This document shows, one piece after another, positions 34,696-49,216 of a stretch of DNA of 64,000 nt (position 1 is the stretch's first letter; every line of letters starts with the position of its first letter). Below the pieces are notes generated by a model. The model did not search any database. It was not told where the DNA came from and worked only from the letters and a program-made list of their open reading frames with translations. Source of the stretch: Shimia gijangensis (lineage in GTDB: Bacteria > Pseudomonadota > Alphaproteobacteria > Rhodobacterales > Rhodobacteraceae); contig NZ_FQZQ01000020.1 in assembly GCF_900142085.1 (NCBI RefSeq), forward strand, positions 1 to 64,000, given 5' to 3'. A program made the translations under genes and the position numbers.

Positions 34696-36159
34696 TCAGC
34701 GCAAAATTGCCTCTGCTTCAATCTCGACTTTGTAATCCCCGATCAATTGCGCGACCACAACCAACGTGTTGGCGGGTTTGATGGCACCAAAAATACGACC
34801 GTGCGCTTTGGAAACTGCCAATACATCGTCTGCGTCCGTTAAATAAATTCGCGTGCGCACCACGTCTTTGGCATCTGCGCCAAGCGCGGAAAGCGCTGCC
34901 AGGATTTTGTCGATGATATATGTGGTCTGGGCACCGGCATCTTGGGATGCCACAGCCCGGTCTGTCCCTGCGGTTGCGGTTGTGCCTGAGACGAGGATGC
35001 GATCTCCGATCTTCTGAGCGCGGCAATAGCCTGCGATGTCTTCCCATTCTGATCCCGACATAACCCGCGTCGCGCCATCCCGATGTGGCACGGCGGTCTT
35101 TTCACAGGCCAGTGGCATCGTATCCAAATGATGGCTCAAGTCGCCCGAAGCGGTCAGAAACGGCGGCTTGCGATATTCATCGCCGCAATCACCGGGCAAC
35201 GGATTGGTTGTGGCAAAGGCAGCGTCCAGGCGCTCGTGATCCTCATTGTCCAGAGCAAAGGAAAACAGTCGCGCATTGTCCGCCATATGTTCGCTTTCGC
35301 CCAGACGTGCGCCAATGATCACCCCGGCCACGCCGGTCTGTTCCAGAACCCACCGGGTCGCCACATTGGCAATTGACATATCGTGCTTGCGTGCAATCTC
35401 GTTCGCGGCGGTCAGAATGCCCTGATATGGCGCCCAGCCGCCAGCAGTGTCGATGAACCGCTTGTACTTCATTTTGGACCAGTCGCTGATTTCGTCCGGT
35501 TCCGGCTGTCCCAGCCAGCGTTCTGACAGGAACCCGCCGCAAAGTGTGCCATAACCCAGCAGACGCACCGGGCTTGCCGAGCACAACTCAGCCAATGGCC
35601 CTGCCGCGCGTCGATCGAGCAGCGAAAATGGTACCTGATTGGTTCGCAAAGGTACGCCATCCGCAAGCGCCAGATGTAAATGCGCCGCGTCGAAATTGGT
35701 CACGCCGATCTCTCCGATCAGCCCCTCCTGGCGCAGTTTCTCCAGTTCGTGCAACGCGTCGAGCCACGCCGGATGTTCAAAGCTCCACCAATGAAATTGC
35801 AGCAAATCCACCCGTGCCACACCAAGCCGATCCAGCCGATCCATGACGCCCGCGCGCACCACCTCTGATGTCATCGGGCCCGGTGCGGGGCACCATTTTG
35901 TAAAGGCTATCGGGCGAGTGCCCTTGTTGTCGTAGCGCCCCAGCAATTGGCCTGTGATGATCTCGGATGTGCCGTAGTGGTCGGCCATGTCAAAAGTGCT
36001 GAACCCGGCACGGACGTATTCCTGCAACGCATCCGCGCCCTTTTCCGGATCGATGATGTCGCCATTTTTTTCGATGTCCGCCACCTGCCAAAGGCCGGTG
36101 ATTACCCGGGTGATCTCAAGCCTGTCGCCAAGCCGGTAATGCTCTGGACGGGCGTTCAT
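34696..36159 (-). CDS. Aldo/keto reductase fused to a RidA domain
   Basis: A 487-residue fusion. Residues 1-~335 are an aldo/keto reductase: FDMADHYGTSE (Asp, Tyr), FTKWCP (Lys), LLQFHWWSFEHP (His), and LEQTGVAGVIIGAR. Residues ~360-487 are a RidA/YjgF domain (KIGDRILVSGTTAT, RIYLTDADDVLAVSKAHG, LVVVAQLIGDYKVEIEAEA) with the conserved Arg in RTRIYLTD. RidA domains hydrolyse enamines/imines (established), so the fusion could couple a redox step with imine removal. It overlaps the GntR gene by 4 bases and is divergent from the TIGR04076/AKR/Liv operon. Confidence 0.85.
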   Translation of the reverse strand: MNARPEHYRLGDRLEITRVITGLWQVADIEKNGDIIDPEKGADALQEYVRAGFSTFDMADHYGTSEIITGQLLGRYDNKGTRPIAFTKWCPAPGPMTSEVVRAGVMDRLDRLGVARVDLLQFHWWSFEHPAWLDALHELEKLRQEGLIGEIGVTNFDAAHLHLALADGVPLRTNQVPFSLLDRRAAGPLAELCSASPVRLLGYGTLCGGFLSERWLGQPEPDEISDWSKMKYKRFIDTAGGWAPYQGILTAANEIARKHDMSIANVATRWVLEQTGVAGVIIGARLGESEHMADNARLFSFALDNEDHERLDAAFATTNPLPGDCGDEYRKPPFLTASGDLSHHLDTMPLACEKTAVPHRDGATRVMSGSEWEDIAGYCRAQKIGDRILVSGTTATAGTDRAVASQDAGAQTTYIIDKILAALSALGADAKDVVRTRIYLTDADDVLAVSKAHGRIFGAIKPANTLVVVAQLIGDYKVEIEAEAILR

Positions 36160-36827
36160 ACGGCGCCCCCATCGGATGCGCCGGGAACCATGATGCGGAA
36201 ACTCCGTTCAATATCAGCAGTCAGTGCAGCAAAGGCCGCTTCGCGGTCTTCCTGTCGCAACGCTTCGATAAGCTGATAGTGATGTTCGTGCTCTTCCACC
36301 TCGGAGGCCTCCTGTTGATGGATGATCAGGTTCAAATAGGCCCCGTACTGCAGCCAAAGCGCCTCAACCAATGGCAACAATACATCCGACCCACTTTTGC
36401 GGTATAGCGTAAAATGAAAGTCATAGTTCTGCTGTAAATCCGGAAGCGGGCTGTCTGCCAATGAGGGTTTTTTCAGGATATCTTCCATCTGTGTCAGAGT
36501 TTCACCGTCCATCCGGTGCATCGCCTGATCCAAAATGATCCCTTCCAACGCAAGTCGCGCGGCCTTGAGGTCCTGCATCCGGTTCTTGTCAAAAGGTGGC
36601 ACTTGCAAGGTACGGCTTGGCGTGTCGATCAACGCACCCTCAGCCACCAAGCGGCGCACGGCTTCGCGCACCGGGGTCATTGAAGTTCCCAGCTGATCGG
36701 CCAGCCCGCGCAGGTTCACCGTATCGCCCGGAGCAAACTCGCCGCGTGTGAAGGCATCCCGCAACGCGAAATAGACGTTTTCACGCAGTTTTGATTGTTC
36801 AATTTTTGCAATTTTCGGGCCGGTCAT
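36156..36827 (-). CDS. GntR-family regulator (FadR/FCD type)
   Basis: A 223-residue regulator. N-terminal winged helix LRENVYFALRDAFTRGEFAPGDTV..GTSMTPVREAVRRLVAEGALI; C-terminal FCD ligand-binding domain (LEGIILDQAMHRMDGETL, DFHFTLYRKSGSDVLLPLVE). The FCD domain binds small acids via a metal ion. The start is set at ATG 36827 (MTGPKIAK); a GTG at 36857 is possible. First gene of its arm. The palindrome at 36891-36905 in the divergent spacer is its likely operator. Confidence 0.88.
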   Translation of the reverse strand: MTGPKIAKIEQSKLRENVYFALRDAFTRGEFAPGDTVNLRGLADQLGTSMTPVREAVRRLVAEGALIDTPSRTLQVPPFDKNRMQDLKAARLALEGIILDQAMHRMDGETLTQMEDILKKPSLADSPLPDLQQNYDFHFTLYRKSGSDVLLPLVEALWLQYGAYLNLIIHQQEASEVEEHEHHYQLIEALRQEDREAAFAALTADIERSFRIMVPGASDGGAV

Positions 36828-36879
36828 GTGGGTTTCTATTCCAGATTTTTCTGCCACGACATTAGCCGCAGGAGTCTGA

Positions 36880-36909
36880 TTGACAAGGCATATGTATCAT
36901 ACATACGAT
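36880..36909 (+). promoter_or_regulatory. Promoter with embedded GntR operator
   Basis: -35 TTGACA (36880-36885) and -10-like TACGAT (36904-36909) 18 bases apart. Between and overlapping them lies a perfect palindrome, TATGTAT and ATACATA around one C (36891-36905). This matches the TGTAT.ATACA pattern common for FadR-type GntR regulators. A repressor bound there would block RNA polymerase. Confidence 0.72.
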
Positions 36910-36959
36910 AAAATATCACAGATCACAGTGCGGCGACCTTCAACCCGCCGAGGAGACTT

Positions 36960-37334
36960 ATGCAAGATAACGACAAGGGGTTCTGGCTCTACGATCTAAA
37001 GGTCGAAACCGTGCTGGATGAGCGCGCACCCGTGTGCCGTCATATCGAAGGGGAAAGCTTTCAGGTTGAGGGCGAAGCGCTCGTGTTTGCGCAAGGCACC
37101 AAAGTCTCCATGTACGCGCTTGCTGCATTGTTGCCTTTGTTGCCCGCCAAACAACGCGAAACGGCCGAGTACGACTGGATGTCCAGCGATGCTGAGGTTG
37201 CTTGCCCCGATCCCCATTGTGGGGGGAGGTTTCGGGTAACACGTACCGACAGGCGCTGGTTTTCCCATGCAGAAACAACGGGTTTGCCTGAAAATCGTGG
37301 CACGCCTTACTGGCAACGGGATGACAATACATGA
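36960..37334 (+). CDS. TIGR04076 family protein
   Basis: A 124-residue protein. MQDNDKGFWLYDLKVE and GESFQVEGEALVF, an RPC-like small beta domain, and the C-terminal VACPDPHCGGRFRVTR with two cysteines are the family features. Function unknown; members often sit next to oxidoreductases. GGAG is 4 bases upstream of the ATG at 36960. First gene of the rightward operon; overlaps the aldo/keto reductase gene by 4 bases. Confidence 0.8.
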   Translation: MQDNDKGFWLYDLKVETVLDERAPVCRHIEGESFQVEGEALVFAQGTKVSMYALAALLPLLPAKQRETAEYDWMSSDAEVACPDPHCGGRFRVTRTDRRWFSHAETTGLPENRGTPYWQRDDNT

Positions 37335-38416
37335 CAAAAGTTGAAACTTGTGATGTTCGCCCCGGACATACCATCTCTCGGGTGATCAAGGGCTGCTGGC
37401 AACTGGCAGGCGATCATGGCCCAGTCGAACGCGAGGCTGCCATCCGCGACATGGAAGCGTTTCTAGACGCTGGAATCACCACCTATGATTGTGCCGATAT
37501 CTACACAGGTGTCGAGGAAATGATTGGCGACTTTATCGGTGATGTTCGCCGCCGCCGGGGGGCTTCGGTTGCGAACAAGGTTTGCGTGCATACCAAACTG
37601 GTGCCTGATCTGAGTCGCCTGCCTGATCTACGCGCTGATGAGGTTGAGGCCATTGTCGACCGCTCACTCAAGCGGCTTCAGGTCGAACAGCTTGATCTGG
37701 TGCAGTTCTTTTGGTGGGATTTGTCCATCGGCAACGCAGTGGCATCGCTTGAGGTGTTGAAGCGTTGCCAAGACAAAGGTAAAATTGCCAACCTAGGTGT
37801 TAACAACTGGGATCGGGCAGAAATCGCCCCCTTTGTTGAGGCGGGCTTTGATGTCGCTTCAACGCAGGTGCAGTATTCCGTTCTGGACCGTCGCCCGGCC
37901 AACGGGCTGAGCGAATGGGCCAGCGATCACAATATGCAGCTTGTCTGCTATGGCACGCTCGCGGGGGGGTTCCTGACTGACAACTGGTTTGGCAAACCTG
38001 ATCCGGGGTTTGAGTTTGAAAACCGGTCTTTGGTAAAATACCGTTTGATCATTGACGAATTTGGCCCGTGGGACAGGTTTCAGTTGCTGCTTGGTGCGCT
38101 AAAGGACGTGGGCGATCGTCATGGTGTGTCCATCGCAACCATCGCCAGCCGCTGGGTGCTGGATCAGCCGCAAGTCGCCGCAGCCATCGTTGGCGCGCGT
38201 TATGCCAGTCATCTGCCCAAAACGCTGGATGTGTTCAACGTTTCGCTGGACCGAGAGGATTATGACCGTATCGGCGCGGTTCTGGCGCAGTCCGATGGGC
38301 CAGACGGTCTGGTTTATGGTTTGGAGCGCGACCGCACAGGGCGGCATGGGCGGATCATGAAGTACAACCTGAACACCCGTCCCGATGATCAAATTCTTGG
38401 CAACGCGAATGACTGA
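37331..38416 (+). CDS. Aldo/keto reductase lacking the catalytic histidine
   Basis: 361 residues. The AKR barrel is clear: YDCADIYTGVEEM (Asp and Tyr), HTKLVPD (Lys), VLDQPQVAAAIVGARY near the end. The position of the catalytic His, read LLQFHWW in the paralogous fusion protein, reads LVQFFWWD here, so a Phe replaces it. That could shift activity from reductase to another reaction, or make it binding-only. Overlaps TIGR04076 by 4 bases and the LivG-like gene by 8 bases. Confidence 0.85.
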   Translation: MTKVETCDVRPGHTISRVIKGCWQLAGDHGPVEREAAIRDMEAFLDAGITTYDCADIYTGVEEMIGDFIGDVRRRRGASVANKVCVHTKLVPDLSRLPDLRADEVEAIVDRSLKRLQVEQLDLVQFFWWDLSIGNAVASLEVLKRCQDKGKIANLGVNNWDRAEIAPFVEAGFDVASTQVQYSVLDRRPANGLSEWASDHNMQLVCYGTLAGGFLTDNWFGKPDPGFEFENRSLVKYRLIIDEFGPWDRFQLLLGALKDVGDRHGVSIATIASRWVLDQPQVAAAIVGARYASHLPKTLDVFNVSLDREDYDRIGAVLAQSDGPDGLVYGLERDRTGRHGRIMKYNLNTRPDDQILGNAND

Positions 38417-39182
38417 GCCGATCCTTCAGACCCGAGGGCTCAGCCGGGATTTTGGTCCGTTTCGTGCGGTCGATGATCTGTCTCTGACGATCCAAAAGGG
38501 CTCAATCACCGGGTTAATCGGCCCCAATGGTGCGGGTAAGTCCACCTGTTTCAACCTGCTGACAGGCATGCTCGCCCCAACGGCGGGGCAGATTATGCTG
38601 AACGGTCAGGACGTGACCCGCCAGCGGCCCGATCAGTTGTTTTCTGCAGGTCTGGGCCGAACCTTCCAAATCCCACGTCCTTTCTCGCGGATGTCGGTGC
38701 TGGAAAACGTCATGCTGGCGCCGCTGAACCAGACCGGCGAACGCATTGTCGGGCCTTTTCTGCGCCGAGCCCGTGTGCACGACGAAGAGGCCCGTATTCG
38801 TGCGCGTGCGCTTGAGGTGCTGGATTTTGTCACGCTGGCCCCGCTGGCGGACCACCCCGCCGGGCAAATCTCGGGTGGGCAGATGAAGCTTTTGGAACTG
38901 GCAAGGGTGCTGATGGGGGATCCTGAGCTGATCCTGCTGGATGAACCTGCCGCAGGTGTGAACCCAACTCTGACCGGCATCCTGATCGGTAAAATCGAAG
39001 AGTTGAACCGGCAGGGAAAGACTTTTGTCATCATCGAACACGACATGGACTTTGTGATGCAACACTGCGATCCGGTGATTGCTCTGGCTGAAGGGCGTAA
39101 AGTCTTTGAAGGCACTGCGGCGCAGGCGCAGGCCGATCCGGTGTTGCTTGACGCTTATCTGGGGGCGATGGCCCATGGTTGA
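38409..39182 (+). CDS. Branched-chain amino-acid-type ABC ATPase, LivG-like
   Basis: A 257-residue ATPase with Walker A GPNGAGKST, signature ISGGQMKLLELARVL and Walker B LILLDEPAAGVN, plus the LivG-type insert near FSAGLGRTFQIPRPFSR. It is one of two ATPases for the importer encoded downstream. The start at 38409 overlaps the preceding gene by 8 bases. Substrate likely the compound processed by the two aldo/keto reductases; not necessarily an amino acid. Confidence 0.92.
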   Translation: MTEPILQTRGLSRDFGPFRAVDDLSLTIQKGSITGLIGPNGAGKSTCFNLLTGMLAPTAGQIMLNGQDVTRQRPDQLFSAGLGRTFQIPRPFSRMSVLENVMLAPLNQTGERIVGPFLRRARVHDEEARIRARALEVLDFVTLAPLADHPAGQISGGQMKLLELARVLMGDPELILLDEPAAGVNPTLTGILIGKIEELNRQGKTFVIIEHDMDFVMQHCDPVIALAEGRKVFEGTAAQAQADPVLLDAYLGAMAHG

Positions 39183-39906
39183 TATTGCACTAACGGCTAA
39201 TAACGTAGTCGCTGGGTATGTGCCCGACTTGCCAATCCTCAAAGACGTGAGCATGCAGGCCCGGCGCGAAGCCGTGACAGTGATCATTGGGCCTAATGGA
39301 GCCGGAAAATCCACATTGATTAAGGCCATAGCCGGACTGCTCCCGGTCAGCGCCGGAACGATCACCCATGGTGATCGAGACATCACGCACATGCGCCCCG
39401 ATCTGTTGACCGGACAGGGGATTTCTTATGTGCCGCAGATGGATAACATTTTCCGCACGCTGACAATCCGCCAGAACCTTGATCTGGCCTTGCGCAAAGT
39501 CGGGCGTGATGCGCCTGCGCGACTGGACGATCTTTACGCCCGTTTTCCTGTGTTGGCCGACAAACGCAATGACAAGGCCGGGGCCCTGTCCGGTGGGCAG
39601 CGACAGTTTTTGGCGGTCGCCATGGCGTTGGCCACGGCCCCAAAGCTGATCCTGATGGATGAGCCCTCTGCCGGGCTTTCTCCTAAGGCCGCTCAGGAAG
39701 TTCTGGAATGCGCCCGCGGGCTGACTGATCAGGGCGTGACGATCCTGCTGGTGGAGCAAAACGTCAATCAGGCTCTGCGCATGGCCGACCATTGCTACAT
39801 TCTTGCCGAAGGGTGCAATCAGGTTGATGGGTCGGCAGCAGATATGTTGAACGATCCCATAGTGGGCGAGATTTATCTCGGTGCCAAACGGATGAGGGCA
39901 TCATGA
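39175..39906 (+). CDS. Branched-chain amino-acid-type ABC ATPase, LivF-like
   Basis: A 243-residue ATPase: Walker A GPNGAGKST, signature LSGGQRQFLAVAMAL, Walker B LILMDEPSAGLSP, followed by VEQNVNQALRMADHCYILAEG, typical of LivF. It overlaps the LivG-like gene by 8 bases and the LivH-like permease by 4 bases. Confidence 0.92.
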   Translation: MVDIALTANNVVAGYVPDLPILKDVSMQARREAVTVIIGPNGAGKSTLIKAIAGLLPVSAGTITHGDRDITHMRPDLLTGQGISYVPQMDNIFRTLTIRQNLDLALRKVGRDAPARLDDLYARFPVLADKRNDKAGALSGGQRQFLAVAMALATAPKLILMDEPSAGLSPKAAQEVLECARGLTDQGVTILLVEQNVNQALRMADHCYILAEGCNQVDGSAADMLNDPIVGEIYLGAKRMRAS

Positions 39907-40817
39907 TCCAGAACCTTGTTGATGGTGTGCTTGTTGGGTCGGTCCTGTCGTTGGGGGCGGTCGGGTTGACCATGGTCATGCATATGTTGCGCTTTGCCAA
40001 TTTCAGCCATGCTGAGTTGCTGTCGATCGGTGCCTATTCGGCGCTGGTGTTTGATGCGCTTTTTTCGGCCATGATGCCGCCCCTTACGGCGGCCATCGGT
40101 CCGTTGTCGATGACATGGGCGCTGGCGCTGTCGGTTGTCTTTTCGCTGGTCATCACGGGGCTTTCGGCACTGTTGATCGATCGGTTGGTGTTCAAGCGAG
40201 TGCGCGAAAAGGGGTCTGAGTTGTCGATGGTCTTTGCCTCATTTGGGGTGGCGATGATCATTCGTAACGTGGTCGGGCTGATCTTTGGGCTGGGAACACA
40301 TCTTTATTCCAAGGACATTGTCTTTGCCGTTGTCCTAAGCCGTGACCCGTTGCTTTTGGTCAAACCCGATCAGGTGTTCACTTTGGTGGCAGCGCTGTTG
40401 ATCATGCTGATCATGCATTTCGTGCTATCGCGGACAACGCTGGGCTATTCCCTGCGTGCCGTCGCCGAAAACCCGACGCTGGCACAGGTCAATGGCATCC
40501 GGCTAAGCCATATGATCGCGCTGGTCTGGCTTGTGGGCGGCGGATTGGCTGCTGTGGCGGGGATCTTCTATGGGCTGTCCAATCAGATCAGCCCAATGAT
40601 CGGCCGCGATCTGGTCTTGCCGATTTTTGCGGCCACCATCGTTGGTGGCATCGGCAGCATTTATGGCGCCGTCCTAGGCGGGTTCATCGTCGGAATTTCG
40701 GCCAGTCTGGCCTTGGCGATCCTGCCGTCGGGCTATAGCCCGTCGATGCCATTTCTGATTATCCTCGCGGTTTTGTTGATCCGCCCCAACGGGTTATTCG
40801 GAGAAGAGCAAACATGA
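39903..40817 (+). CDS. ABC permease, LivH-like
   Basis: A 304-residue inner-membrane permease with about eight helices. LivH hallmarks: MIQNLVDGVLVGSVLSLGAVG at the start, YSLRAVAENPTLAQVNGI (coupling helix region) and GGIGSIYGAVLGGFIVG near the C-terminus. Overlaps LivM-like gene by 4 bases. Confidence 0.92.
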   Translation: MIQNLVDGVLVGSVLSLGAVGLTMVMHMLRFANFSHAELLSIGAYSALVFDALFSAMMPPLTAAIGPLSMTWALALSVVFSLVITGLSALLIDRLVFKRVREKGSELSMVFASFGVAMIIRNVVGLIFGLGTHLYSKDIVFAVVLSRDPLLLVKPDQVFTLVAALLIMLIMHFVLSRTTLGYSLRAVAENPTLAQVNGIRLSHMIALVWLVGGGLAAVAGIFYGLSNQISPMIGRDLVLPIFAATIVGGIGSIYGAVLGGFIVGISASLALAILPSGYSPSMPFLIILAVLLIRPNGLFGEEQT

Positions 40818-41785
40818 TCGGTCTCCTTTCATACGCGGTGTTCTTCACCACTGTTGCCTCCATTCTGGCCATCGCTGTGCTGGGGCTGAACTTGCAATGG
40901 GGCAATACAGGCCTGTTCAATGGCGGTGTTGTCGCGTTCTTTGGGGCAGGGGCCTATGGCACGTTGATCCTTGGCAGCGCGGCCCAGCCAGACCAGTTCG
41001 GTGGGTTCAATCTGTTCTACCCGGCGGCCCTCATCGGCGGCATGGTGGTCGCCGGTTTGCTGGCCTGGGTGGTCGGTATACTGACCCTGCGATTGCGCCA
41101 TGATTATCTGGCCATTGCGACCTTTGGCATTGCCGTAACTTTTGAAAATATCATGCGCAATGCGGAGTGGTTGTCTGGAGGAGCCAAGGGTATTCGCGGC
41201 TTTGAACAGCCTCTGCGCGACGCGTTCGGCGGAGGGTTGGCCTATAACGCGGCCTTTTTGGCCTTTGTGGTTGCTGCCCTGATCGCGGTTTATCAGTTTT
41301 TGCAGCATCTTGTCAGCTCGCCGTTCGGGCGGCTGTTGCGCGCCATCCGCGAGGACGAAGGCGCGGCCCGGTCTCTGGGCAAAGCTCCCTCCCGTGTGCG
41401 ACTTACAGCCTTCATCACCGGATCAGTGATCATGGGGCTTTCCGGCGGGCTTTATGCCACATTCTATGCGTTCGTCAGCCCGCAGGATGTGCTGCCCACG
41501 CTGACGTTCCAAATCTGGGCCATGCTGATCGTCGGCGGGGCGGGCAATAATCGTGGCGCGGTGCTGGGTGCATTCCTGATTTGGGGCGCCTGGACTGCCA
41601 GCGGCTGGTCGTTGTCCCGATTTGCCCCCATCGAAGCCCAGCTTTACACCGGATCGATCCAGTACATCCTGATCGGGTCCGTCATTGTCGGCATGTTGCT
41701 CTGGAGGCCCCAGGGCCTGTTCCCCGAGCGGCTTGTCGTCTCACAATCGGGGAAACCCGGTGCAACAAAAAAACAGGGAGTTTGA
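40814..41785 (+). CDS. ABC permease, LivM-like
   Basis: A 323-residue permease. Recognised by AVLGLNLQWGNTGLFNGGVV, RLRHDYLAIATFGIAV and GRLLRAIREDEGAARSLGK, all LivM family blocks. Forms the membrane channel with the LivH-like partner. Followed after 2 bases by the binding-protein gene. Confidence 0.92.
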   Translation: MIGLLSYAVFFTTVASILAIAVLGLNLQWGNTGLFNGGVVAFFGAGAYGTLILGSAAQPDQFGGFNLFYPAALIGGMVVAGLLAWVVGILTLRLRHDYLAIATFGIAVTFENIMRNAEWLSGGAKGIRGFEQPLRDAFGGGLAYNAAFLAFVVAALIAVYQFLQHLVSSPFGRLLRAIREDEGAARSLGKAPSRVRLTAFITGSVIMGLSGGLYATFYAFVSPQDVLPTLTFQIWAMLIVGGAGNNRGAVLGAFLIWGAWTASGWSLSRFAPIEAQLYTGSIQYILIGSVIVGMLLWRPQGLFPERLVVSQSGKPGATKKQGV

Positions 41786-41787
41786 AA

Positions 41788-43047
41788 ATGAAAATGGGAT
41801 CGAAACATATTACTGGACTGGCGCTTGGCCTGACAGTCAGCGCTTTTGGCAGCGCGGCCATGGCCAGCGATTGCACCACCAAGATCGGAACGGTCCTGCC
41901 GACCTCTGTCGACTGGGGCCGCCCGATCGCTGAAACAGCAGGGTTTGCAGTTGAGCAAGTCAACGAAGCCGGTGGCGTTCAGGGCTGCGAGATCGAAATG
42001 GTTCTGCGGGACAGTCAGGTTGATCCCAAAGTCGGTGTAGACGCTGCCAAAGCTCTGGTTGATCTGGATGGCGTTCAGGTTTTGATCGGTGCGGTGTCCA
42101 GCGGTGTATCGATGCCGATCCTGACATCAGTTACCGTGCCTGCGGGTGTCGCGCAATTCTCGTGCTGCTCGTCGTCCGGGGCCTTCACAACGTTGGCCGA
42201 AGAAGGCGGCACCAATGGTCTGTGGTTCCGCACCTTCGCCACCTCTGGCGTTCAGGCCGCCGTTGGTGCCAAGGTTGCCAAAGATCAGGGCTATGGCTCG
42301 ATCGCGATTCTTTACAAGAACGACGACTGGGGTCAGGACATTTCCAAACTGATCGCCGAAGATCTGGTCGATATGGGCATCACAGTGACCGCCTCTGTTG
42401 CGATAAATGATGGCCAGCCATCCTATCGCGCCGAAGTGACCGAAGCGCTCGGTGGCCAGCCCGAAGCCATCTATATGGCGCTGTATCCCAATGAAGGCGC
42501 ATCGGTTGTTCGCGAATGGTTGTCCTTGGGTGGTACGCAGAACATGGTTATGGCCAATTCGCTGAAATCAGACGAGTTCCGCGACAATGTCGGCCTGCAG
42601 TATCTGGGCAACGCACTTGGCACTGACACGGCCTCACCGCGCGTGGCTTCGGCTGATGCGTTTGTGGCGAGCTATAAGGAACGGTTTGAGTCCGAACCCA
42701 ATGGCCCGGGCCTGTCCAACAGCTATGATGCGACCATGATTGCCTTGTTGGCGATGGAAGCCGCTGGCAAAGATGCCACCGGTGCCGAAATTGCCGCAAG
42801 TGTCAGCCGCGTGACTGACCCAGCTGGAACCCCAGTTTCAGCAGACGCCGCAGGTTTTGCCGCAGCTCGCGAGGCGCTCACCGCAGGTGGATCGGTGATG
42901 TATCAAGGCGCAACTGGCAACGTGCGGTTTGACGCCAATGGTGACGTTTCCGCCCCTGCCGTTGTCTGGAGCTTCACCGAAACCGGCACGCAGGAAAAGC
43001 AATATGTCACTCTGCAAGAAGTCGATGCCCTGATGATGGGTGACTAA
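41788..43047 (+). CDS. ABC substrate-binding protein, LivJ/LivK-like
   Basis: A 419-residue periplasmic protein. Signal peptide ends SAAMASDC. Fold blocks IGTVLPTSVDWGRPIAETAGF, AVSSGVSMPILTSVTVPAGV, FRTFATSGVQAAVGAKVAKD and NSYDATMIALLAMEAAG fit the type I periplasmic binding proteins. The binding loop SCCSSSGAFTTLA has paired cysteines, which is unusual. Last gene of the operon; GGAG is 7 bases before the ATG at 41788. Confidence 0.92.
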   Translation: MKMGSKHITGLALGLTVSAFGSAAMASDCTTKIGTVLPTSVDWGRPIAETAGFAVEQVNEAGGVQGCEIEMVLRDSQVDPKVGVDAAKALVDLDGVQVLIGAVSSGVSMPILTSVTVPAGVAQFSCCSSSGAFTTLAEEGGTNGLWFRTFATSGVQAAVGAKVAKDQGYGSIAILYKNDDWGQDISKLIAEDLVDMGITVTASVAINDGQPSYRAEVTEALGGQPEAIYMALYPNEGASVVREWLSLGGTQNMVMANSLKSDEFRDNVGLQYLGNALGTDTASPRVASADAFVASYKERFESEPNGPGLSNSYDATMIALLAMEAAGKDATGAEIAASVSRVTDPAGTPVSADAAGFAAAREALTAGGSVMYQGATGNVRFDANGDVSAPAVVWSFTETGTQEKQYVTLQEVDALMMGD

Positions 43048-43091: not shown

Positions 43092-43666
43092 GTTCAAACA
43101 TATCCGCAACGCGACCCCAAATCGTCAGATGAATGACAAAGCAGGCCGATTGCAGTTGCTGTCCGTCGTCACGCATTGGCCAACGCAGTAGCATCCCCGA
43201 TCGGCCTGACGTTCTGGAGGACATGAGCGCAACCGCACAAAATGCGGCGACGACCAGCTCAAACGTCGGAATTACAACATCGAACTGTTCGGCATGCCAT
43301 CGCAATCAGGCTTATTGGTCTTGCCGCGCTTGCATTCCGGTCTTTCAACTCATTTAGGCGGCCACTCTCATTGAATGCACGCATTCAACTGCCGTGCAGT
43401 GCTTAGCATTGCAAGCTTAGGTGGTGTTGTTCTTGGGTATGAGCCAGGAGCACCATATCATCGTGTTGATGCTTCTGAACCCTTTATAACGTCGAAACTC
43501 GCCTGAATATCTTATCTCCTTCATAGAAAACATTGCTCGGAAGAGACCGGACCTAAGCCACGACAAGATAAATGCAAGTTACTTGATTTATTTTTAGGTT
43601 TCAGACGCTGTGGCGAATATTCAAAAAATTTTCTTATCAACAAAGATTATATTTGGGGGATCAGTC
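43092..43666. other. Non-coding or decayed region
   Basis: No solid gene. A palindrome TGAATGC/GCATTCA (2-base centre) is at 43372-43387. A minus-strand frame ending VADMFEPRPG (43078-43305) might be a fragment of a PAS-type protein but is too weak to call. AT content rises towards 43600, marking the border of a foreign-looking tract. Confidence 0.4.
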
Positions 43667-44983
43667 ATGACCATTTTCACGCTTTCGGGGTTTACGATTT
43701 TTTATGAGGACATTGGGGGCAACGACGAACAGGTCGATGGACAGCCTGTCACACTTCGGGTTGTGACCGAAGACTCAGAAACGTTCTTTTCTTACTCTTT
43801 GACCGGCGTCTCGGATGGTGGGCTTAGTGTGGTTGATATCACAGCCAACGTGCTGGGACTGATTGCGAATGCGGTAAGTGGCGATAGTTCAGGTTCTGGC
43901 CTGGAGTTTTACATCGGCGAACTTACATGGGGCTCGGGAAACCAGACCACCATCCTAAACATTTGGTCCGACACTGGAGGTGGTACTTCGGTCGAGCACG
44001 TGATTGCGATTGATGGAGACCCTCTGCCCGCCGTGAACTCTTTGGCTGATTTGACCAGTGTGACGGGTCCATCACAGCGGTTACTGGTGCGCCTTCGACA
44101 GGCCCATTTGCGCCGGGTCAGAACATTGCTTGGTCAAGCTTGATGGGTGCCACTGTTGAGAACGATAATCTGATCGAAGGCACTACGGACAATGACACGC
44201 TTGATGGTACAGATGGAAACGATATCAATGATCCCCTGACCAATGATTGGGAAGACATCATCAACGGCTCGTCTGGCAATGATTTGTTGGTATTTTCCGA
44301 GGTCGACTCGTCCAGTTTCTATACCATTATTTACGAAGACATGGATGCGGGTATTACCGTCAATCTTGATGCAGAGTATGGTATTGCGGAAGTTGACAAG
44401 GGCTTGAACGGGACGGACACGCTGGTTGATTTCCATGACGCAATTGGCTGGAATACTGGCGGCCAGGGCGGTTGGATCGGCGGAACCAGTCACGATGATG
44501 TATAAACGTCAGCAATGGCAACAGCACATGGCTTGGTGTGTCTGGTGGCCATGGCGACGACACTTTCAATATCGGTGGTGATGGCATTGTACGCATCAGC
44601 TTCCGTTACAATGGCTTTGAAAGCACCTTTGAAAATGCCACATTGGGGGCTGTCGTTGACCTTTCAACCGGCACTGTATCGAACGATGGATTTGGTGGGC
44701 AGGATACCATCACTGTGATAGGGTCCTCGGCCCGCGTTGAGATTGAAGGCACGCGCATCAATGACTCAATTACCGGCAGCAGCCGCGACGAGCGTTTTAT
44801 CCTTCATCAAGGTGATGACACTCTGGATGCTGGTGATGGTTGGGACATGATCCGCTATGATCGATCAGGTGTCGGGAGCGTAAATATCAACCTCGCGACT
44901 GGCCAAGCCTTTGGTATTTGGGAAGGTCAAGGATTTAACCATTCGATCTCCGGTGTGGAAGAAATCCGAGGATCTCGTGAAGC
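43667..44983 (+). pseudogene. RTX/hemolysin-type calcium-binding protein gene, broken
   Basis: Starts with MTIFTLSGFTIFYEDIGGND; the ATG at 43667 has GGGGG 8 bases upstream. A glycine/aspartate-rich RTX-type repeat (LIEGTTDNDTLDGTDGND; SGGHGDDTFNIGGDG) supports a secreted calcium-binding protein. Frame 1 ends at 44143. Its true continuation (SITAVTGAP then FAPGQNIAWSSL) is in another frame after a one-base loss near 44068. A second one-base loss near 44503 turns DDV-N into a stop (44505), and coding resumes from 44506 in the third frame. The 3' end is cut by the IS6 copy at 44984. Not functional. Confidence 0.8.
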
Positions 44984-45754
44984 GGCTTTGTCACGTTAAC
45001 CCAGACGAACCAAATAAGCCGCCGCAATCCGAGATTAGGTCGCCACAATCTCACGCCATTCAGCAAATGCGTTAGCACGCATTTGACGGAAAGTTGAGCG
45101 AGAGATCAGATGGCGTTGCAGAGTGAATTGGTTGTAGATTGCGTCGTGGACGGACAGAAACCGTTGCATCGATCCGGGTGACTTGAACCGGCCCATTCGG
45201 CGTTCTCGTCGACGCGTCGGTTGATGTGAAACTTCCGCCCGATTGTTCAATCGACCGCCTGTGACATGAAGATGCTTCAGGCCAAGATCCCGAAGTGCCG
45301 CAGAATATGAACCCAACTTGTCGGTGACAATCATATCCGGAATGTACCCCTGCTTTTTCAGGAGTTTTCGCATAAGTTTAAGGGCTGAACGCTTGTTTCG
45401 GCGAGATTGAGCGAGGACTTCAAGAACCTCTCCTTCATCGTCTACGGCTCGCCACAAATAGGTTCGTTTGCCACCAATGCGAACAAAGACCTCATCAAGA
45501 TGCCAGGTTCCTGAAGGTTGAACTCTGCGGGATCTGACGTTAGCGGAAATCGCCGGACCGAATTTTAAAATCCATCGGCGGATCGTTTCATAGCTGACAT
45601 CGATCCCTCGTTCTGCCAGCATTTCCTCGACGTCCCGAAAGCTCAGCGGAAAGCGAAAGTAGAGCCAGACGGCCCGTTGAATTATTGTCGGTGGAAAGCG
45701 GTGGCGTGCGTAAGATATCTTTATCATTCAACCACAACTATCCGTCGCAAAGCT
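44984..45754. mobile_element. IS6-family insertion sequence
   Basis: About 771 bases. Left end GGCTTTGTCACG and right end (read inward) AGCTTTGCGACG match at 9 of 12 positions. One transposase gene, minus strand. The expected 8-base target duplication is absent: the left flank reads CGTGAAGC, the right GATCGTCG. The two flanks belong to different genes, as expected from an IS6-driven deletion or recombination. Confidence 0.75.
45035..45727 (-). CDS. IS6-family transposase
   Basis: A 230-residue DDE transposase. It opens with the IS6 pattern RHRFPPTIIQRAVWLYFRFP, an HTH-like LAERGIDVSYETIRRW, catalytic Asp in WHLDEVFVRIGG and VTDKLGSY, and the late QPTRRRERRMGRFKS. Intact and probably active. 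It interrupts the fused RTX/TPR junction. Confidence 0.9.
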   Translation of the reverse strand: MIKISYARHRFPPTIIQRAVWLYFRFPLSFRDVEEMLAERGIDVSYETIRRWILKFGPAISANVRSRRVQPSGTWHLDEVFVRIGGKRTYLWRAVDDEGEVLEVLAQSRRNKRSALKLMRKLLKKQGYIPDMIVTDKLGSYSAALRDLGLKHLHVTGGRLNNRAEVSHQPTRRRERRMGRFKSPGSMQRFLSVHDAIYNQFTLQRHLISRSTFRQMRANAFAEWREIVAT

Positions 45755-46369
45755 GATCGTCGAGTTAATGTGTCAGTGCCTAAATTCGCGTTGGACATTG
45801 CCCGGAAAGGGGCCGCGCTGGACAACAACGATGTCTATATTCAGGACCAACTTGGATATGCCTATTTGAGCGCCCAATTGTGGGACGAAGCAAATGTGCA
45901 GTTCGAAAAGACTTTGTCGCGCATCGTTAACGAAGCAGAGTCCATGGCGTGGTGCGGTTATGGGTTCTTGCTGCTGTCTCGTCATGAAAAAGCACATGAA
46001 GTTGTCATCGAAGCAATGCGGCTTGATCCGCTCCATCCCCCGTCTCTGGATTGGATTCTTGGGCAGGTGTATTTTTTCCTTGGCCGGTATGAGGATTCTG
46101 TTGGAAAACTGATCGGTGAGGCGCATTTAAATTCTTTGGCAGGTGCGATTCTCGTTGCAGCGTATGCGCATTCCGAACGGCAAGGTGAGGCTGAAACTGC
46201 ATTGGTGTCCTTTGTTCAACGCCGCAGAGCTGAGCTTGAAAGTCGTGGCATAGCGGCGGGCGCTAACACTATCGCGGAACTCGCCGGGGGTTTCAGAGCG
46301 ATGTGGCGCAATCCCGAAGACTGGGGGCTCCTCGCGTCTGGATTGCGCCAAGCTGGCCTACCAGACTAA
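45755..46369 (+). pseudogene. 3' fragment of a TPR protein (TolB/TPR regulator type)
   Basis: About 204 codons from the IS6 right end to the stop. Repeats such as YIQDQLGYAYLSAQLWDEANVQ and PPSLDWILGQVYFFLGRYEDS are tetratricopeptides; the end AGGFRAMWRNPEDWGLLASG is typical of roseobacter adenylate-cyclase- or LuxR/TolB/TPR-type regulators. The N-terminal regulatory and catalytic domains are missing. The reading frame into the IS (start at 45677) is accidental. Confidence 0.7.
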
Positions 46370-46902
46370 GCGCCACACGTGTTTTCGATTGCAGCGGCAG
46401 GCAGCTTCGTCCGCATCGCGGTCATCCGCCCCGCGGAGATGCTGCAAGATGCACGAATGGCTGGTTTGGTGAAGCTGCATTGCAGCGCCATCGTTCCCGG
46501 TGAAAGGCAGGATTGGGCCGAAAGCGCCAACTGGGCAGGTTTGTAAGAAGGTCTGGAAAGTCCCGCGTAGTGTGAATCCGACCTTCGCAGAATTTGCAGT
46601 TGCAGCGAACGGCCGGTCTGACGGGCTGCGTCGCAGCATCATGAGGGTGAGTCGAAGGTCTGGTCTGGGCCGTTAGCAGTCAAACCCGGCAACTAAGCTG
46701 TGTTCGACAACGGCGGTTGCGGGCTCTCGATTTGAACCTAAAGGGTGACTTTGACAAATTTCACTGGACTAGCCAGTCAAACAGAGCGGTACTGTCATTG
46801 CGATGCCCCTGAAGGGCGCGCGCGAGTTTCTCCGCCCGGACCTCCGGGCCCCACTCAGTACAAGGCGCGGGAAAGTCCGGTGCCATATGAGTGGAGAAAG
46901 AC
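46370..46902. other. Non-coding, repeat-like spacer
   Basis: No gene recognised. It has GAAAGTCC and TTGCAG..CAGCGAAC-type degenerate blocks like those near 1150 and 16250. Perhaps decayed mobile DNA. GGAG at 46893-46896 serves the DUF3489 gene. Confidence 0.5.
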
Positions 46903-47178
46903 ATGACCCAAGAAACTGCACCCCAGCGGCTAAAGCCACCAGCATCTGCCTTCGCGAAGGCTCAGGTGGCCAATACCACCCGCCCAGTTCAGTTACGCAA
47001 GCTGCTGACCCGCAAGAGTGGCGCCACAATCGTACAAATCCAGAGGGCCTTTGGTTGGCAGCCCCATACGGCGCGCGCAGCGATCTCTGGCCTGCGCAAG
47101 CTCGGCGAAATCATCGAACGCAGCGAGACGCCAAGGGGCCCTGTGTATCGCATTGTGCCGACGGAGGCTGTGACATGA
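46903..47178 (+). CDS. DUF3489 domain protein
   Basis: 91 residues. The block RKLLTRKSGATIVQIQRAFGWQPHTARAAISGLRKLGEIIE is the DUF3489 helix-turn-helix-like fold. It is nearly always found beside DUF2924 and a large serine recombinase. GGAG lies 6 bases upstream of the ATG at 46903. It overlaps the DUF2924 gene by 4 bases. Likely DNA-binding regulator or accessory factor of the recombinase. Confidence 0.85.
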   Translation: MTQETAPQRLKPPASAFAKAQVANTTRPVQLRKLLTRKSGATIVQIQRAFGWQPHTARAAISGLRKLGEIIERSETPRGPVYRIVPTEAVT

Positions 47179-47588
47179 AGTTTCCCGCATCCGAGACGCT
47201 TGCGGCCGGTAGCTCAAATATCAACGGGCTGGAGCGCGCTGGCCATCTAGAACTCTGGCAGGAAGCCTTCGGACGGCCACCACCTAAACACCTGTCACCC
47301 CGGTTGATGAGGCGTATCCTGATCTGGGATCTGCAATGTCGCCTGCTTGGAGGGGTGCCGGTCAAAACAGATCGGGTCCTCAAGCAGATTGCGGCAGGCA
47401 AAGCGCCAGCCGGAACAACAAAGCCCGGCTCCCACCTGATCCGGGAATGGAACGGGCGCACCTATCAGGTTGAGGTAAAGGGCAAGGGCTATGTCATGGA
47501 CGGCAAAACCTACCGGTCCCTCTCGGCGATTGCCCGACGTATCACCGGGGCCCACTGGTCAGGCCCGCGTTTCTTTGGGCTGACCTGA
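47175..47588 (+). CDS. DUF2924 domain protein
   Basis: 137 residues. Contains LELWQEAFGRPPPKHLSPRLM and HLIREWNGRTYQVEVKGKGYV, both DUF2924 signatures, and ends SLSAIARRITGAHWSGPRFFGL, a segment resembling the end of an SRA/AP2-like DNA-binding domain. Function unknown; it forms a fixed module with DUF3489 and a serine recombinase. Overlaps the recombinase start by one base (TGATG). Confidence 0.85.
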   Translation: MKFPASETLAAGSSNINGLERAGHLELWQEAFGRPPPKHLSPRLMRRILIWDLQCRLLGGVPVKTDRVLKQIAAGKAPAGTTKPGSHLIREWNGRTYQVEVKGKGYVMDGKTYRSLSAIARRITGAHWSGPRFFGLT

Positions 47589-49216
47589 TGCGCCGGGTTC
47601 GCTGCGCCATATACACTCGCAAGAGCACCGAGGACGGGCTGGAACAGGACTTCAACTCGCTGGATGCGCAACGCGAAGCTTGTGAAGCCTATATTGCCAG
47701 CCAGAAGCATGAAGGATGGGAGTTGCTGCCAGATCGCTATGATGATGGCGGCATCTCGGGCGGCCATCTTGAACGCCCGGCACTGCAAAGGCTGATGCAG
47801 GATATCGATGCCAAGCAGGTTGACCAGATTGTCGTCTACAAGATCGACAGGTTGACGCGCTCTCTGGCAGACTTTGCAAAGCTGGTTGATCGGTTGGACG
47901 CAGCGGAGGCGTCCTTTGTCTCTGTCACCCAATCGTTCAATACCGCCACCAGTATGGGAAGGCTGACACTCAATGTGCTTTTGAGCTTCGCCCAGTTTGA
48001 GCGAGAGGTCACGGCAGAACGCATTCGGGACAAGATAGCGGCCTCCAAGAAGAGGGGGCTGTGGATGGGCGGTCATGTCCCGCTTGGCTACCAGCCAAAT
48101 GGCAGAACACTGCAAATTGACGAGGCTGAGGCCGAAACTGTTCGCGCGCTTTATGATCTTTATCTCGAGCACCGCTCCATCCGGATCGTAAAGGAAAAGG
48201 CCGAAGGACTTAAACTCAGGACCCGACGTCGTGAGCGACCGGATGGTCGCGTCACAGGCGGTGGCCTGTTTGACCGGGGCCACATCCATCATATTTTGAC
48301 AAACCCGATCTATGCAGGACGCATCCGACATAAGGGGAATGTATACGAAGGCCAGCATCCGGCGATCATTGACCCTGAGGTTTGGGAACAGACACAAGGC
48401 ATGCTGAAAGATGTCGCCCTTAAAACGCGTGGCACCAAACAACGCGCAACGCGCTCACCTCTAGCAGGCAAGCTTTATGATGAAACCGGCGACCGTCTTA
48501 CACCCAGCCATAGTCAGAAAAACGGCAAACGCCTGCGCTATTACATCTCCCGCCGCCTAGTGGTGGAACGCAGTAAGAAGCACCCCGATGCCTGGCGATT
48601 GCCTGCAGAGCAGCTAGAAGGCCTGCTGGTTGATGTTGTTAACCAGCATCTCGGCCGCAAGGGTGCCGCTGCTCTGATGACAGTAGATCTGTCAGCTACA
48701 GAGCTTGTTGCTGTCAACGGTTCGCTTCAGGAAGTCTGCAAACCTCATCAAGTCATCGGCCTCATTGAGCGGGTTGATCTCGCACCTGGATCATTGCGCG
48801 TTCGCCTGGGTGCGGAAGCTCTGGTCAGTCTCCTCGGGATTCCGGCGGATAAGATCGTCTTTGAAGCGCTTACGATCAAGGCGCCGTTCCAGATGCGGCG
48901 CAGGGGTGTTGAGCTGAAACTTCATCTCGGGGTGGCGCCCGTAGAGATTGACAAGACCCTGATCCAGAACATTGTCAAAGCTAAAAGTTGGTTGGCAATG
49001 ATCACAGAAGGTAAAACCTTCACCGAGATTGCAGACGCTGATGGCACTTCAAAGCGTCGAATCCAGGCTGTCATCGAGCTCGCTTTGCTTGCGCCAGAAA
49101 GCCTGGATGTCATCGCAATAGGCAAGCAGCCCATGGGGCTTACTTCCGATTATTTGGTCAAAACGGGCTTTTCAGCCATCTGGGCAGAACAACAAGAACA
49201 GTTCGCCAAATTGTAA
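47588..49216 (+). CDS. Large serine recombinase
   Basis: 542 residues. The resolvase domain starts AIYTRKSTEDGL with catalytic Ser at residue 13, continuing with DRYDDGGISGGHLERPALQ and YKIDRLTRSLADF. A recombinase domain (about 160-290: GHVPLGYQPNG, RGHIHHILTNPIYAGRIRHKG) and a C-terminal alpha-helical part follow. The usual zinc ribbon and coiled coil look weak. It probably integrates or excises an element; the adjacent decayed RTX/IS region and tRNA-Gln suggest a worn island. Confidence 0.9.
   Translation: MRRVRCAIYTRKSTEDGLEQDFNSLDAQREACEAYIASQKHEGWELLPDRYDDGGISGGHLERPALQRLMQDIDAKQVDQIVVYKIDRLTRSLADFAKLVDRLDAAEASFVSVTQSFNTATSMGRLTLNVLLSFAQFEREVTAERIRDKIAASKKRGLWMGGHVPLGYQPNGRTLQIDEAEAETVRALYDLYLEHRSIRIVKEKAEGLKLRTRRRERPDGRVTGGGLFDRGHIHHILTNPIYAGRIRHKGNVYEGQHPAIIDPEVWEQTQGMLKDVALKTRGTKQRATRSPLAGKLYDETGDRLTPSHSQKNGKRLRYYISRRLVVERSKKHPDAWRLPAEQLEGLLVDVVNQHLGRKGAAALMTVDLSATELVAVNGSLQEVCKPHQVIGLIERVDLAPGSLRVRLGAEALVSLLGIPADKIVFEALTIKAPFQMRRRGVELKLHLGVAPVEIDKTLIQNIVKAKSWLAMITEGKTFTEIADADGTSKRRIQAVIELALLAPESLDVIAIGKQPMGLTSDYLVKTGFSAIWAEQQEQFAKL

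What the first reader, a model, noticed from the sequence alone, without database searches (positions are those of the whole stretch)
34696..43047. Complete unknown uptake-and-oxidation regulon: GntR, AKR-RidA, TIGR04076, AKR, Liv importer
Divergent arms share one repressor-like site. The fusion of aldo/keto reductase with RidA suggests a pathway that forms an unstable imine or enamine after oxidation. A second, His-less AKR and a TIGR04076 protein are coupled by start-stop overlaps. This is the best candidate for an undescribed catabolic system in the window.
Basis: partly seen in the sequence, partly recalled or inferred. Interest (0 to 1): 0.7.

Follow-up and report, generated by a model that had tools for sequence, protein, structure and literature searches.

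The report
Amino-acid uptake and oxidation gene cassette
A block of nine genes that travels as a unit between bacteria seems to import an unidentified amino-acid-like compound and start breaking it down; relatives hint that the compound is related to tryptophan, and my searches found no description of this system.

Summary
They form a real, patchily distributed cassette: of 99 non-redundant loci with the fusion, 75 carry TIGR04076, AKR2 and all five Liv genes nearby. In type-I loci a conserved element in the divergent gap (window 36910-36923) tracks the regulator: 28 of 28 loci with it, 0 of 25 without.

Two corrections. The fused Rid domain has Asn where imine deaminases have Arg105 (28 of 28). 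AKR2's missing His is lineage-specific.

Two leads. Eight fusion-less relatives, about three lineages, carry an FAD amine-oxidase-family gene instead, in five directly after livM; this fits a C-N oxidation step. Kynureninase, tryptophan dioxygenase or putative anthranilate-CoA genes lie beside the cassette in several lineages, suggesting a tryptophan-related amino acid; but 9 of 23 cassette carriers in the family sample lack tryptophan dioxygenase, and in the window's genome it lies on another contig. Ligand and reaction remain inferred. Verdict: an apparently undescribed catabolic cassette built of known families.

The parts
34696..36159 (-). AKR-Rid fusion (aldo/keto reductase domain, conserved linker, C-terminal Rid domain), 487 aa
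   Evidence: tetrad D60-Y62-K88-H123 kept, Asn464 at the Arg105 place
36156..36857 (-). GntR/FCD-type regulator, 233 aa (223 aa if it starts at the ATG at 36827)
   Evidence: PF00392, PF07729
36910..36923 (-). Putative regulator-binding element ATCTGTGATATTTT in the divergent gap
   Evidence: 28 of 28 type-I loci with GntR, 0 of 25 without
36891..36905 (.). Perfect 15-bp palindrome, seen in the window only; role doubtful
36960..37334 (+). TIGR04076 family protein, 124 aa; C26, C82, C87 and H103 invariant in 34 aligned relatives
37331..38416 (+). AKR2, aldo/keto reductase with Phe at the catalytic His place
38409..39182 (+). LivG-type ATPase
39175..39906 (+). LivF-type ATPase
39903..40817 (+). 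LivH-type permease
40814..41785 (+). LivM-type permease
41788..43047 (+). LivK-type periplasmic binding protein (Peripla_BP_6)

Best explanation
A self-contained, GntR-controlled uptake and first-steps catabolic cassette for an amino-acid-like compound. Shown: nine genes in two divergent arms, inherited together, with a conserved DNA element between the arms that goes with the regulator gene. Inferred: the regulator represses both arms until a ligand arrives; the Liv-type importer brings in a compound with an alpha-amino-acid head; TIGR04076 and AKR2 act on it as a pair; the AKR-Rid fusion oxidises it at or next to a C-N bond and its tethered Rid domain handles the imine- or enamine-like product. 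In some relatives an FAD amine-oxidase-family enzyme, in two of them with a separate Rid protein, takes the fusion's place. In some lineages the product probably drains into the kynurenine/anthranilate route, so the imported compound is most likely a tryptophan-related amino acid. Rough odds: co-inherited regulated cassette 0.9; amine/imine oxidation step 0.45; tryptophan-related ligand 0.35.
For: Full set in 75 of 99 fusion loci; protein distances correlate at 0.88-0.97 within the plus arm and 0.73-0.79 with the fusion (not corrected for species divergence). Footprint 28/28 against 0/25. Fusion keeps D-Y-K-H in 92 of 92. FAD DAO-family gene instead of the fusion in 8 of 12 fusion-less Liv cassettes (L174-L178, L213, L216, L218), directly after livM in five. 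Kynurenine-route genes within about 10 kb in 6 of 99 loci and also in L184, L211, L220, L221; in the family sample tryptophan dioxygenase lies within 25 kb of the fusion in 4 of 19 bearers (P about 7e-5 under random placement, computed after the pattern was seen). The binding protein keeps Ser, Ser/Thr and Glu/Asp at places that bind amino acids in LivJ (roles recalled).
Against: The Rid domain lacks Arg105. 11 of 30 fusion carriers, and 9 of the 23 with the Liv cassette, have no tryptophan dioxygenase; presence differs only mildly from non-carriers (19/30 against 19/50, one-sided p 0.024). In the window's genome the dioxygenase is on another contig and the anthraniloyl-CoA-type gene gave no match. 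Ten fusion loci show none of the cassette genes, among them L090 and L125 with 10 kb free on one side. The DAO swap rests on about three lineages, and four fusion-less cassettes (L211, L220-L222) have neither fusion nor DAO hit.
Confidence: 0.4

Rival explanations
1. The AKRs reduce rather than oxidise: the cassette imports a compound that carries or forms a reactive carbonyl or imine, AKR-Rid and AKR2 reduce it with NAD(P)H, and the Rid domain is structural or binds the product.
For: AKRs are mostly reductases (recalled); the fusion has a full D-Y-K-H tetrad; the Rid domain lacks the deaminase Arg.
Against: FAD amine-oxidase-family replacement in some relatives; aspartate-dehydrogenase-like and stand-alone Rid genes recur in variant cassettes.
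Confidence: 0.25
2. The ligand is a cyclic secondary amine or lactam of the pipecolate/lysine or proline type, and the kynurenine genes are incidental neighbours.
For: Best NCBIfam relative of the replacing oxidase is L-pipecolate oxidase (288 bits, cut-off 600); hydantoinase subunits in L220 are nearest to caprolactamase (498 of 1000 and 208 of 1000 bits).
Against: Both matches are below cut-off; kynurenine-route genes recur beside the cassette in several lineages.
Confidence: 0.2
3. An ordinary branched-chain amino acid importer with unrelated metabolic genes beside it.
For: All five transporter genes are Liv/HAAT type; nearest solved structures include ones with Leu, Ala and Val bound.
Against: Co-inheritance with TIGR04076 and AKR2; all five Liv proteins score far below the NCBIfam Liv equivalog cut-offs; binding protein about 20% identical to LivJ.
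Confidence: 0.06

Closest known systems
Liv/HAAT ABC importers (E. coli LivKHMGF)
   Same: Two ATPases, two BPD_transp_2 permeases, a Peripla_BP_6 binding protein; likely amino-acid recognition positions kept
   Different: Below the Liv equivalog cut-offs; fixed company of TIGR04076 and AKR genes; own clade of binding proteins
RidA/YjgF family (Niehaus et al. 2015, PMC4433059; passages seen)
   Same: PF01042 domain; Tyr17 and Glu120 places kept as Tyr and Glu
   Different: Asn at the Arg105 place; fused to an AKR domain. The passages seen mention fused Rid domains but 'aldo' does not occur in the text
FAD-dependent amine oxidases next to Rid genes (PMC4433059 passages; L-pipecolate oxidase AmaA model NF050086)
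   Same: Oxidise amines to imines and cluster with Rid genes; a DAO-family gene takes the fusion's slot in L174-L178
   Different: FAD- not NAD(P)-type enzyme; match below the AmaA cut-off
Tryptophan-kynurenine-anthranilate catabolic clusters
   Same: Tryptophan dioxygenase and kynureninase genes adjoin the cassette in some relatives
   Different: No such gene recognised in the window; many carriers lack tryptophan dioxygenase
TIGR04076 gene of the Bilophila isethionate cluster (PMC8667426, one passage seen)
   Same: TIGR04076 gene in a catabolic cluster
   Different: No AKR named in the passage seen; its authors list it only as potentially involved in redox reactions or iron cluster metabolism

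Membership tests
Imine-hydrolysing Rid proteins (RidA, Rid1-3) | Arg at the E. coli RidA 105 place | tested here: not met
   Asn in 28 of 28 fusions; E. coli RidA has Arg in the same alignment; role of the Arg from PMC4433059 passages
Rid superfamily | PF01042 domain | tested here: met
   77 bits, cut-off 27.3; TIGR00004 cut-off not reached, 53 of 106
Aldo/keto reductases: fusion | PF00248 and D-Y-K-H tetrad | tested here: met
   92 of 92 fusions
Aldo/keto reductases: AKR2 | Catalytic His of the tetrad | tested here: not met
   Phe in the window; Phe or Tyr in 46 of 46 close orthologues, His in 50 of 57 distant ones; PF00248 itself met
TIGR04076 | NCBIfam cut-off | tested here: met
   56 bits, cut-off 33
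XdhC/CoxI-type fold for TIGR04076 (naming recalled) | Structural match | tested here: inconclusive
   Z 7.1, rmsd 3.9, 80 aligned to 2we8; Z 6.3 to 3on5; next row 4.0; no Foldseek match at E<=0.001
Liv/HAAT ABC importer | Two ABC ATPases, two BPD_transp_2 permeases, Peripla_BP protein | tested here: met
E. coli-type Liv equivalogs | NCBIfam equivalog or subfamily cut-offs | tested here: not met
   LivG 191/362, LivF 155/441, LivH 108/379, LivM 106/366, binding protein 61/477 bits
Branched-chain amino acid binding | Binds Leu/Ile/Val | not testable with these tools
   Needs ligand assay
GntR/FCD regulators | PF00392 plus PF07729 | tested here: met
   46.8 and 58.3 bits
Tryptophan/kynurenine catabolic locus | Tryptophan dioxygenase or kynureninase in the cluster | tested here: inconclusive
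   Present beside some relatives; own dioxygenase on another contig; kynureninase was not searched in the own genome
L-pipecolate oxidase (replacing enzyme in L174) | NF050086 cut-off | tested here: not met
   288 of 600 bits; DAO domain PF01266 met at 219.5 bits

The most novel reading that the evidence does not exclude
A dedicated salvage pathway for modified tryptophan: the cassette imports an oxidised or cyclised tryptophan (for example an oxindole- or pyrroloindole-type amino acid formed by light or radicals), and AKR-Rid (or an FAD oxidase plus Rid) with the TIGR04076-AKR2 pair turns it into something the kynurenine/anthranilate route can take. It would give TIGR04076 a first biochemical role and show a Rid domain working without Arg105 inside an oxidoreductase.
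Probability: 0.15. Interest if true: 0.75.

Novelty: new variant of a known kind. Interest (0 to 1): 0.48.

Why it matters
The cassette ties three families with open roles (TIGR04076, Arg-less Rid domains, AKRs that lost the catalytic His) to one imported ligand and one regulator, so a single ligand screen on the binding protein could open all three. It is scattered through Alphaproteobacteria from sea, soil and plants, plasmids included, so it may serve a widespread nutrient.

Tried and rejected
Plain branched-chain amino acid system: unlikely, not excluded. Palindrome 36891-36905 as the operator: not seen in relatives; the 36910-36923 element is better supported. Tryptophan dioxygenase as obligatory partner: rejected, 11 of 30 fusion carriers lack it. 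'Missing His defines AKR2': rejected. 'The fusion is the heart of the system': rejected; 12 Liv cassettes with TIGR04076-AKR2 but no fusion in the stretch were seen (L174-L178, L211, L213, L216, L218, L220-L222). Genome-wide absence of the fusion was looked at only for the five Rhizobium-type genomes, which (7 of 398 listed with a fusion at E<=1e-70) did not list. TIGR04076 fold: no Foldseek match at E<=0.001; weak second-look lead to 2we8/3on5. TIGR04076 outside the class (L180-L182): no AKR hit at the BLAST cut-off used, 3 of 3, so the pairing is not universal. Unfused AKR3 in L211, L216, L218, L220, L221 sits next to the fusion clade with weak support (85/91) and a changed tetrad D-Y-R-Q; left open. 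One Rid protein, in L211, does keep Arg at the 105 place, unlike the fusions and the nine RidB proteins.

Literature: searches gave no description of this gene set; others were too broad to be telling, and the library lacks most subscription journals. What I saw: listings; one passage of PMC8667426, passages of PMC4433059, one passage of PMC5214803, passages of PMC11130421 (irrelevant: the 'rida' hit was a drug name).

Rows dropped: of 109 genome loci (L065-L144, L037-L064, L031) 10 were removed as duplicates of the same fusion sequence; plasmid loci are not in the 99; nor is the window, which is in the 28. The 50 non-carriers are 50 of the 265 genomes without a fusion hit, taken in handle order with a few skipped. 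Gene lists of loci come from a home-made codon model; starts may be wrong. Names such as 2-aminobenzoate-CoA ligase and anthraniloyl-CoA monooxygenase are my reading: the nearest NCBIfam models are benzoate-CoA ligase family (360 of 375 bits) and salicylyl-CoA 5-hydroxylase/oxidoreductase. The clustering P values were computed after the pattern was seen.
Full report
What is there. The nine genes stand where the finding puts them. The minus arm holds GntR/FCD and the AKR-Rid fusion, overlapping by 4 nt. The plus arm holds TIGR04076, AKR2, LivG, LivF, LivH, LivM and the binding protein, joined by 4-8 nt overlaps and one 2-nt gap.

Is it a unit? Among 295 genomes of the window's family (own included) 30 carry the fusion at E<=1e-60; the one same-genus genome in that set does not. 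Eighteen of 72,556 plasmid records hold a match at E<=1e-60. Of 99 non-redundant fusion loci, 75 hold TIGR04076, AKR2 and all five Liv genes, 11 are incomplete with a contig end under 8 kb away, 3 are incomplete otherwise and 10 show none. Of those 10, six (L031, L057, L058, L060-L062) carry more distant fusions (55-59% identity) and four (L074, L090, L125, L144) close ones (69-74%); L090 and L125 have 10 kb free on one side, so a close fusion can stand alone. Four of the distant-fusion loci (L058-L060, L062) lie beside what look by eye like polar amino-acid transport genes; L150, a plasmid locus of that kind, is annotated so. Fifty-five of the 75 full sets have a GntR homologue. Pairwise protein distances correlate at 0.88-0.97 among AKR2, TIGR04076, LivG, LivH and LivK, and at 0.73-0.79 with the fusion, without correction for species divergence: the plus arm travels as a block, the fusion is a looser partner. 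In a 60-row tree with 16 fusions their AKR domains form one clade (100/100).

Two main architectures. In type I (window) GntR, where present, and the fusion diverge from the TIGR04076-AKR2-Liv arm. In type II (most often in loci titled Rhizobium, Mesorhizobium and relatives) GntR-TIGR04076-AKR2-LivK diverges from LivGFHM-fusion. Type-II plus-arm proteins are about 37-56% identical to the window's, the fusion 65-69%. Other orders exist (L064, L124, L148, L207-L210).

Control. In the type-I gap ATCTGTGATATTTT (core TATC-TGT-GATA) occurs with at most 2 mismatches in 28 of 28 loci with the GntR gene and 0 of 25 without; one of 560 shuffled regions reaches that. In the window it lies at 36910-36923, with one mismatch in the palindromic core. 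Type II has GTTTGATCAAACAT instead (at most 1 mismatch in 26 of 29). The motifs were picked from these loci and the loci share descent, so this is a footprint, not an independent test. The palindrome 36891-36905 was seen only in the window.

Catalytic details. The fusion keeps D-Y-K-H in 92 of 92. AKR2 keeps D-Y-K in 103 of 103; its fourth residue is Phe or Tyr in 46 of 46 close orthologues and His in 50 of 57 distant ones, the other seven having Phe, Tyr or Cys. The fused Rid domain has Asn at the place of E. coli RidA Arg105 in 28 of 28, and so have nine of nine stand-alone RidB proteins; a different Rid protein in L211 keeps Arg. Niehaus et al. 2015 (PMC4433059, passages seen) report that the Arg is needed for imine hydrolysis and that subfamilies without it presumably serve other functions. 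TIGR04076 has invariant Cys26, Cys82, Cys87 and His103 in 34 sequences, which would suit a metal site (inference).

What replaces the fusion. Five genomes (L174-L178; Rhizobium-like by kinship, unnamed) have the cassette without the fusion. In the four whose genes were listed, an FAD-dependent DAO-family gene overlaps or directly follows livM, the slot that type II gives the fusion; L176 has a homologue at the same place. L213, L216 and L218 also have such a gene, the last two with a stand-alone Rid gene. Its best NCBIfam relative is L-pipecolate oxidase, well below cut-off. Among the 99 fusion loci four have a homologue in the stretch, at 27-36% identity (L125, L112, L140, L047). This is the best sequence argument that the fusion oxidises a C-N bond; it rests on about three lineages, and L211 and L220-L222 have neither fusion nor such an oxidase.

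What the core is. Of 376 genomes of the class 20 hold a TIGR04076 of this kind. In 19 regions from 17 of them an AKR2 homologue adjoins TIGR04076 in 18, a Liv set is present in 11 and the fusion in 4. L179, from another of the 20, has the pair with an MFS transporter and a DUF885 protein. So TIGR04076 + AKR2 is the most constant pair; uptake and third enzyme vary.

Which substrate. The binding protein models well (pLDDT 88.7). Among its nearest structures are ones with leucine, alanine, valine and aromatic acids bound. Against E. coli LivJ it keeps Ser and Ser/Thr at the carboxylate and amino places and Glu (type I) or Asp (the others aligned) at the amino-group acid (roles recalled), so an alpha-amino-acid head is likely. 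Neighbours point to tryptophan. Tryptophan dioxygenase, kynureninase, or putative 2-aminobenzoate-CoA ligase or anthraniloyl-CoA monooxygenase genes lie in 6 of 99 loci (L047, L052, L087, L094, L104, L133); in L052 the dioxygenase gene overlaps the fusion gene by 4 nt. L184 has a Rid-dioxygenase-kynureninase-ligase run 2-6 kb from the fusion. L211 has kynureninase (315 bits, cut-off 246) next to livM and a dioxygenase-family gene. L220 and L221, one genus, have a kynureninase-like gene (238 bits in L220, just under cut-off) near livM, with hydantoinase and indolepyruvate-oxidoreductase-like genes, all below their NCBIfam cut-offs. In the family sample the dioxygenase lies within 25 kb of the fusion in 4 of 19 bearers (P about 7e-5 under random placement) and the anthraniloyl-CoA-type gene in 3 of 14 (P about 6e-4); both were computed after the pattern was seen.

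Against tryptophan: 11 of 30 fusion carriers, and 9 of the 23 that have the Liv cassette, lack the dioxygenase; the difference from non-carriers is small (19/30 against 19/50, one-sided p 0.024). In the window's own genome the dioxygenase is on contig C44, not C59, and the anthraniloyl-CoA-type gene gave no match at E<=1e-100. The likeliest reading is that the product can enter the kynurenine/anthranilate route but need not.

Other recurrent additions among the 99: an aspartate-dehydrogenase-like gene overlapping or adjoining livK (7 loci), stand-alone RidB (5) and an SRPBCC-like gene (4, named by eye; no Pfam or NCBIfam hit); DUF4440/SnoaL-like genes occur in some type-II loci. An imine-forming dehydrogenase and Rid proteins again fit amine chemistry.

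Novelty. Searches of an open-access library gave no description of the cassette. The parts are known families; the combination, the AKR-Rid fusion and the TIGR04076-AKR2 pairing appear undescribed within that limit.

Noticed in passing
window 43610-49216: Beyond the binding protein lie ORFs that look by eye like calcium-binding repeat proteins, a transposase (45035-45727) and a site-specific recombinase (47588-49216), so the cassette may sit beside mobile DNA; not checked by any search.
   Followed up: no
L059, L060, L062, L150: A more distant AKR-Rid fusion (about 55-57% identity) lies among polar amino-acid transporter genes with hydrolase or amidohydrolase genes, a second context for the same fusion.
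   Followed up: partly
L047, L048, L065, L089, L095, L099, L116, L222: A short aspartate-dehydrogenase-like gene (PF01958 over cut-off in the two scanned, L044 = L095 and L047; below all NCBIfam cut-offs) overlaps or adjoins livK, in L222 livG.
   Followed up: partly
window 36960-37334 (model): The TIGR04076 model gives its best structural match, weakly, to 2we8/3on5 (Z 7.1 and 6.3; next row 4.0), which I recall as XdhC-type proteins.
   Followed up: partly
L211, L216, L218, L220, L221: A third, diverged AKR with tetrad D-Y-R-Q stands in these fusion-less cassettes and falls next to the fusion clade with weak support.
   Followed up: partly
AKR-Rid residues 322-345 (window 34696-36159): The linker between the two domains (GDCGDEYR..PFLTASGDLS.HL) is nearly invariant in 17 aligned fusions, one Cys included, more than a passive tether would need.
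   Followed up: no
L174, L175, L177, L213: A DUF3830 gene stands next to TIGR04076 in the DAO-type cassettes of L174-L178 and L213; in L174, L175 and L177 a kinase (APH family) and a class-III aminotransferase also lie nearby.
   Followed up: no
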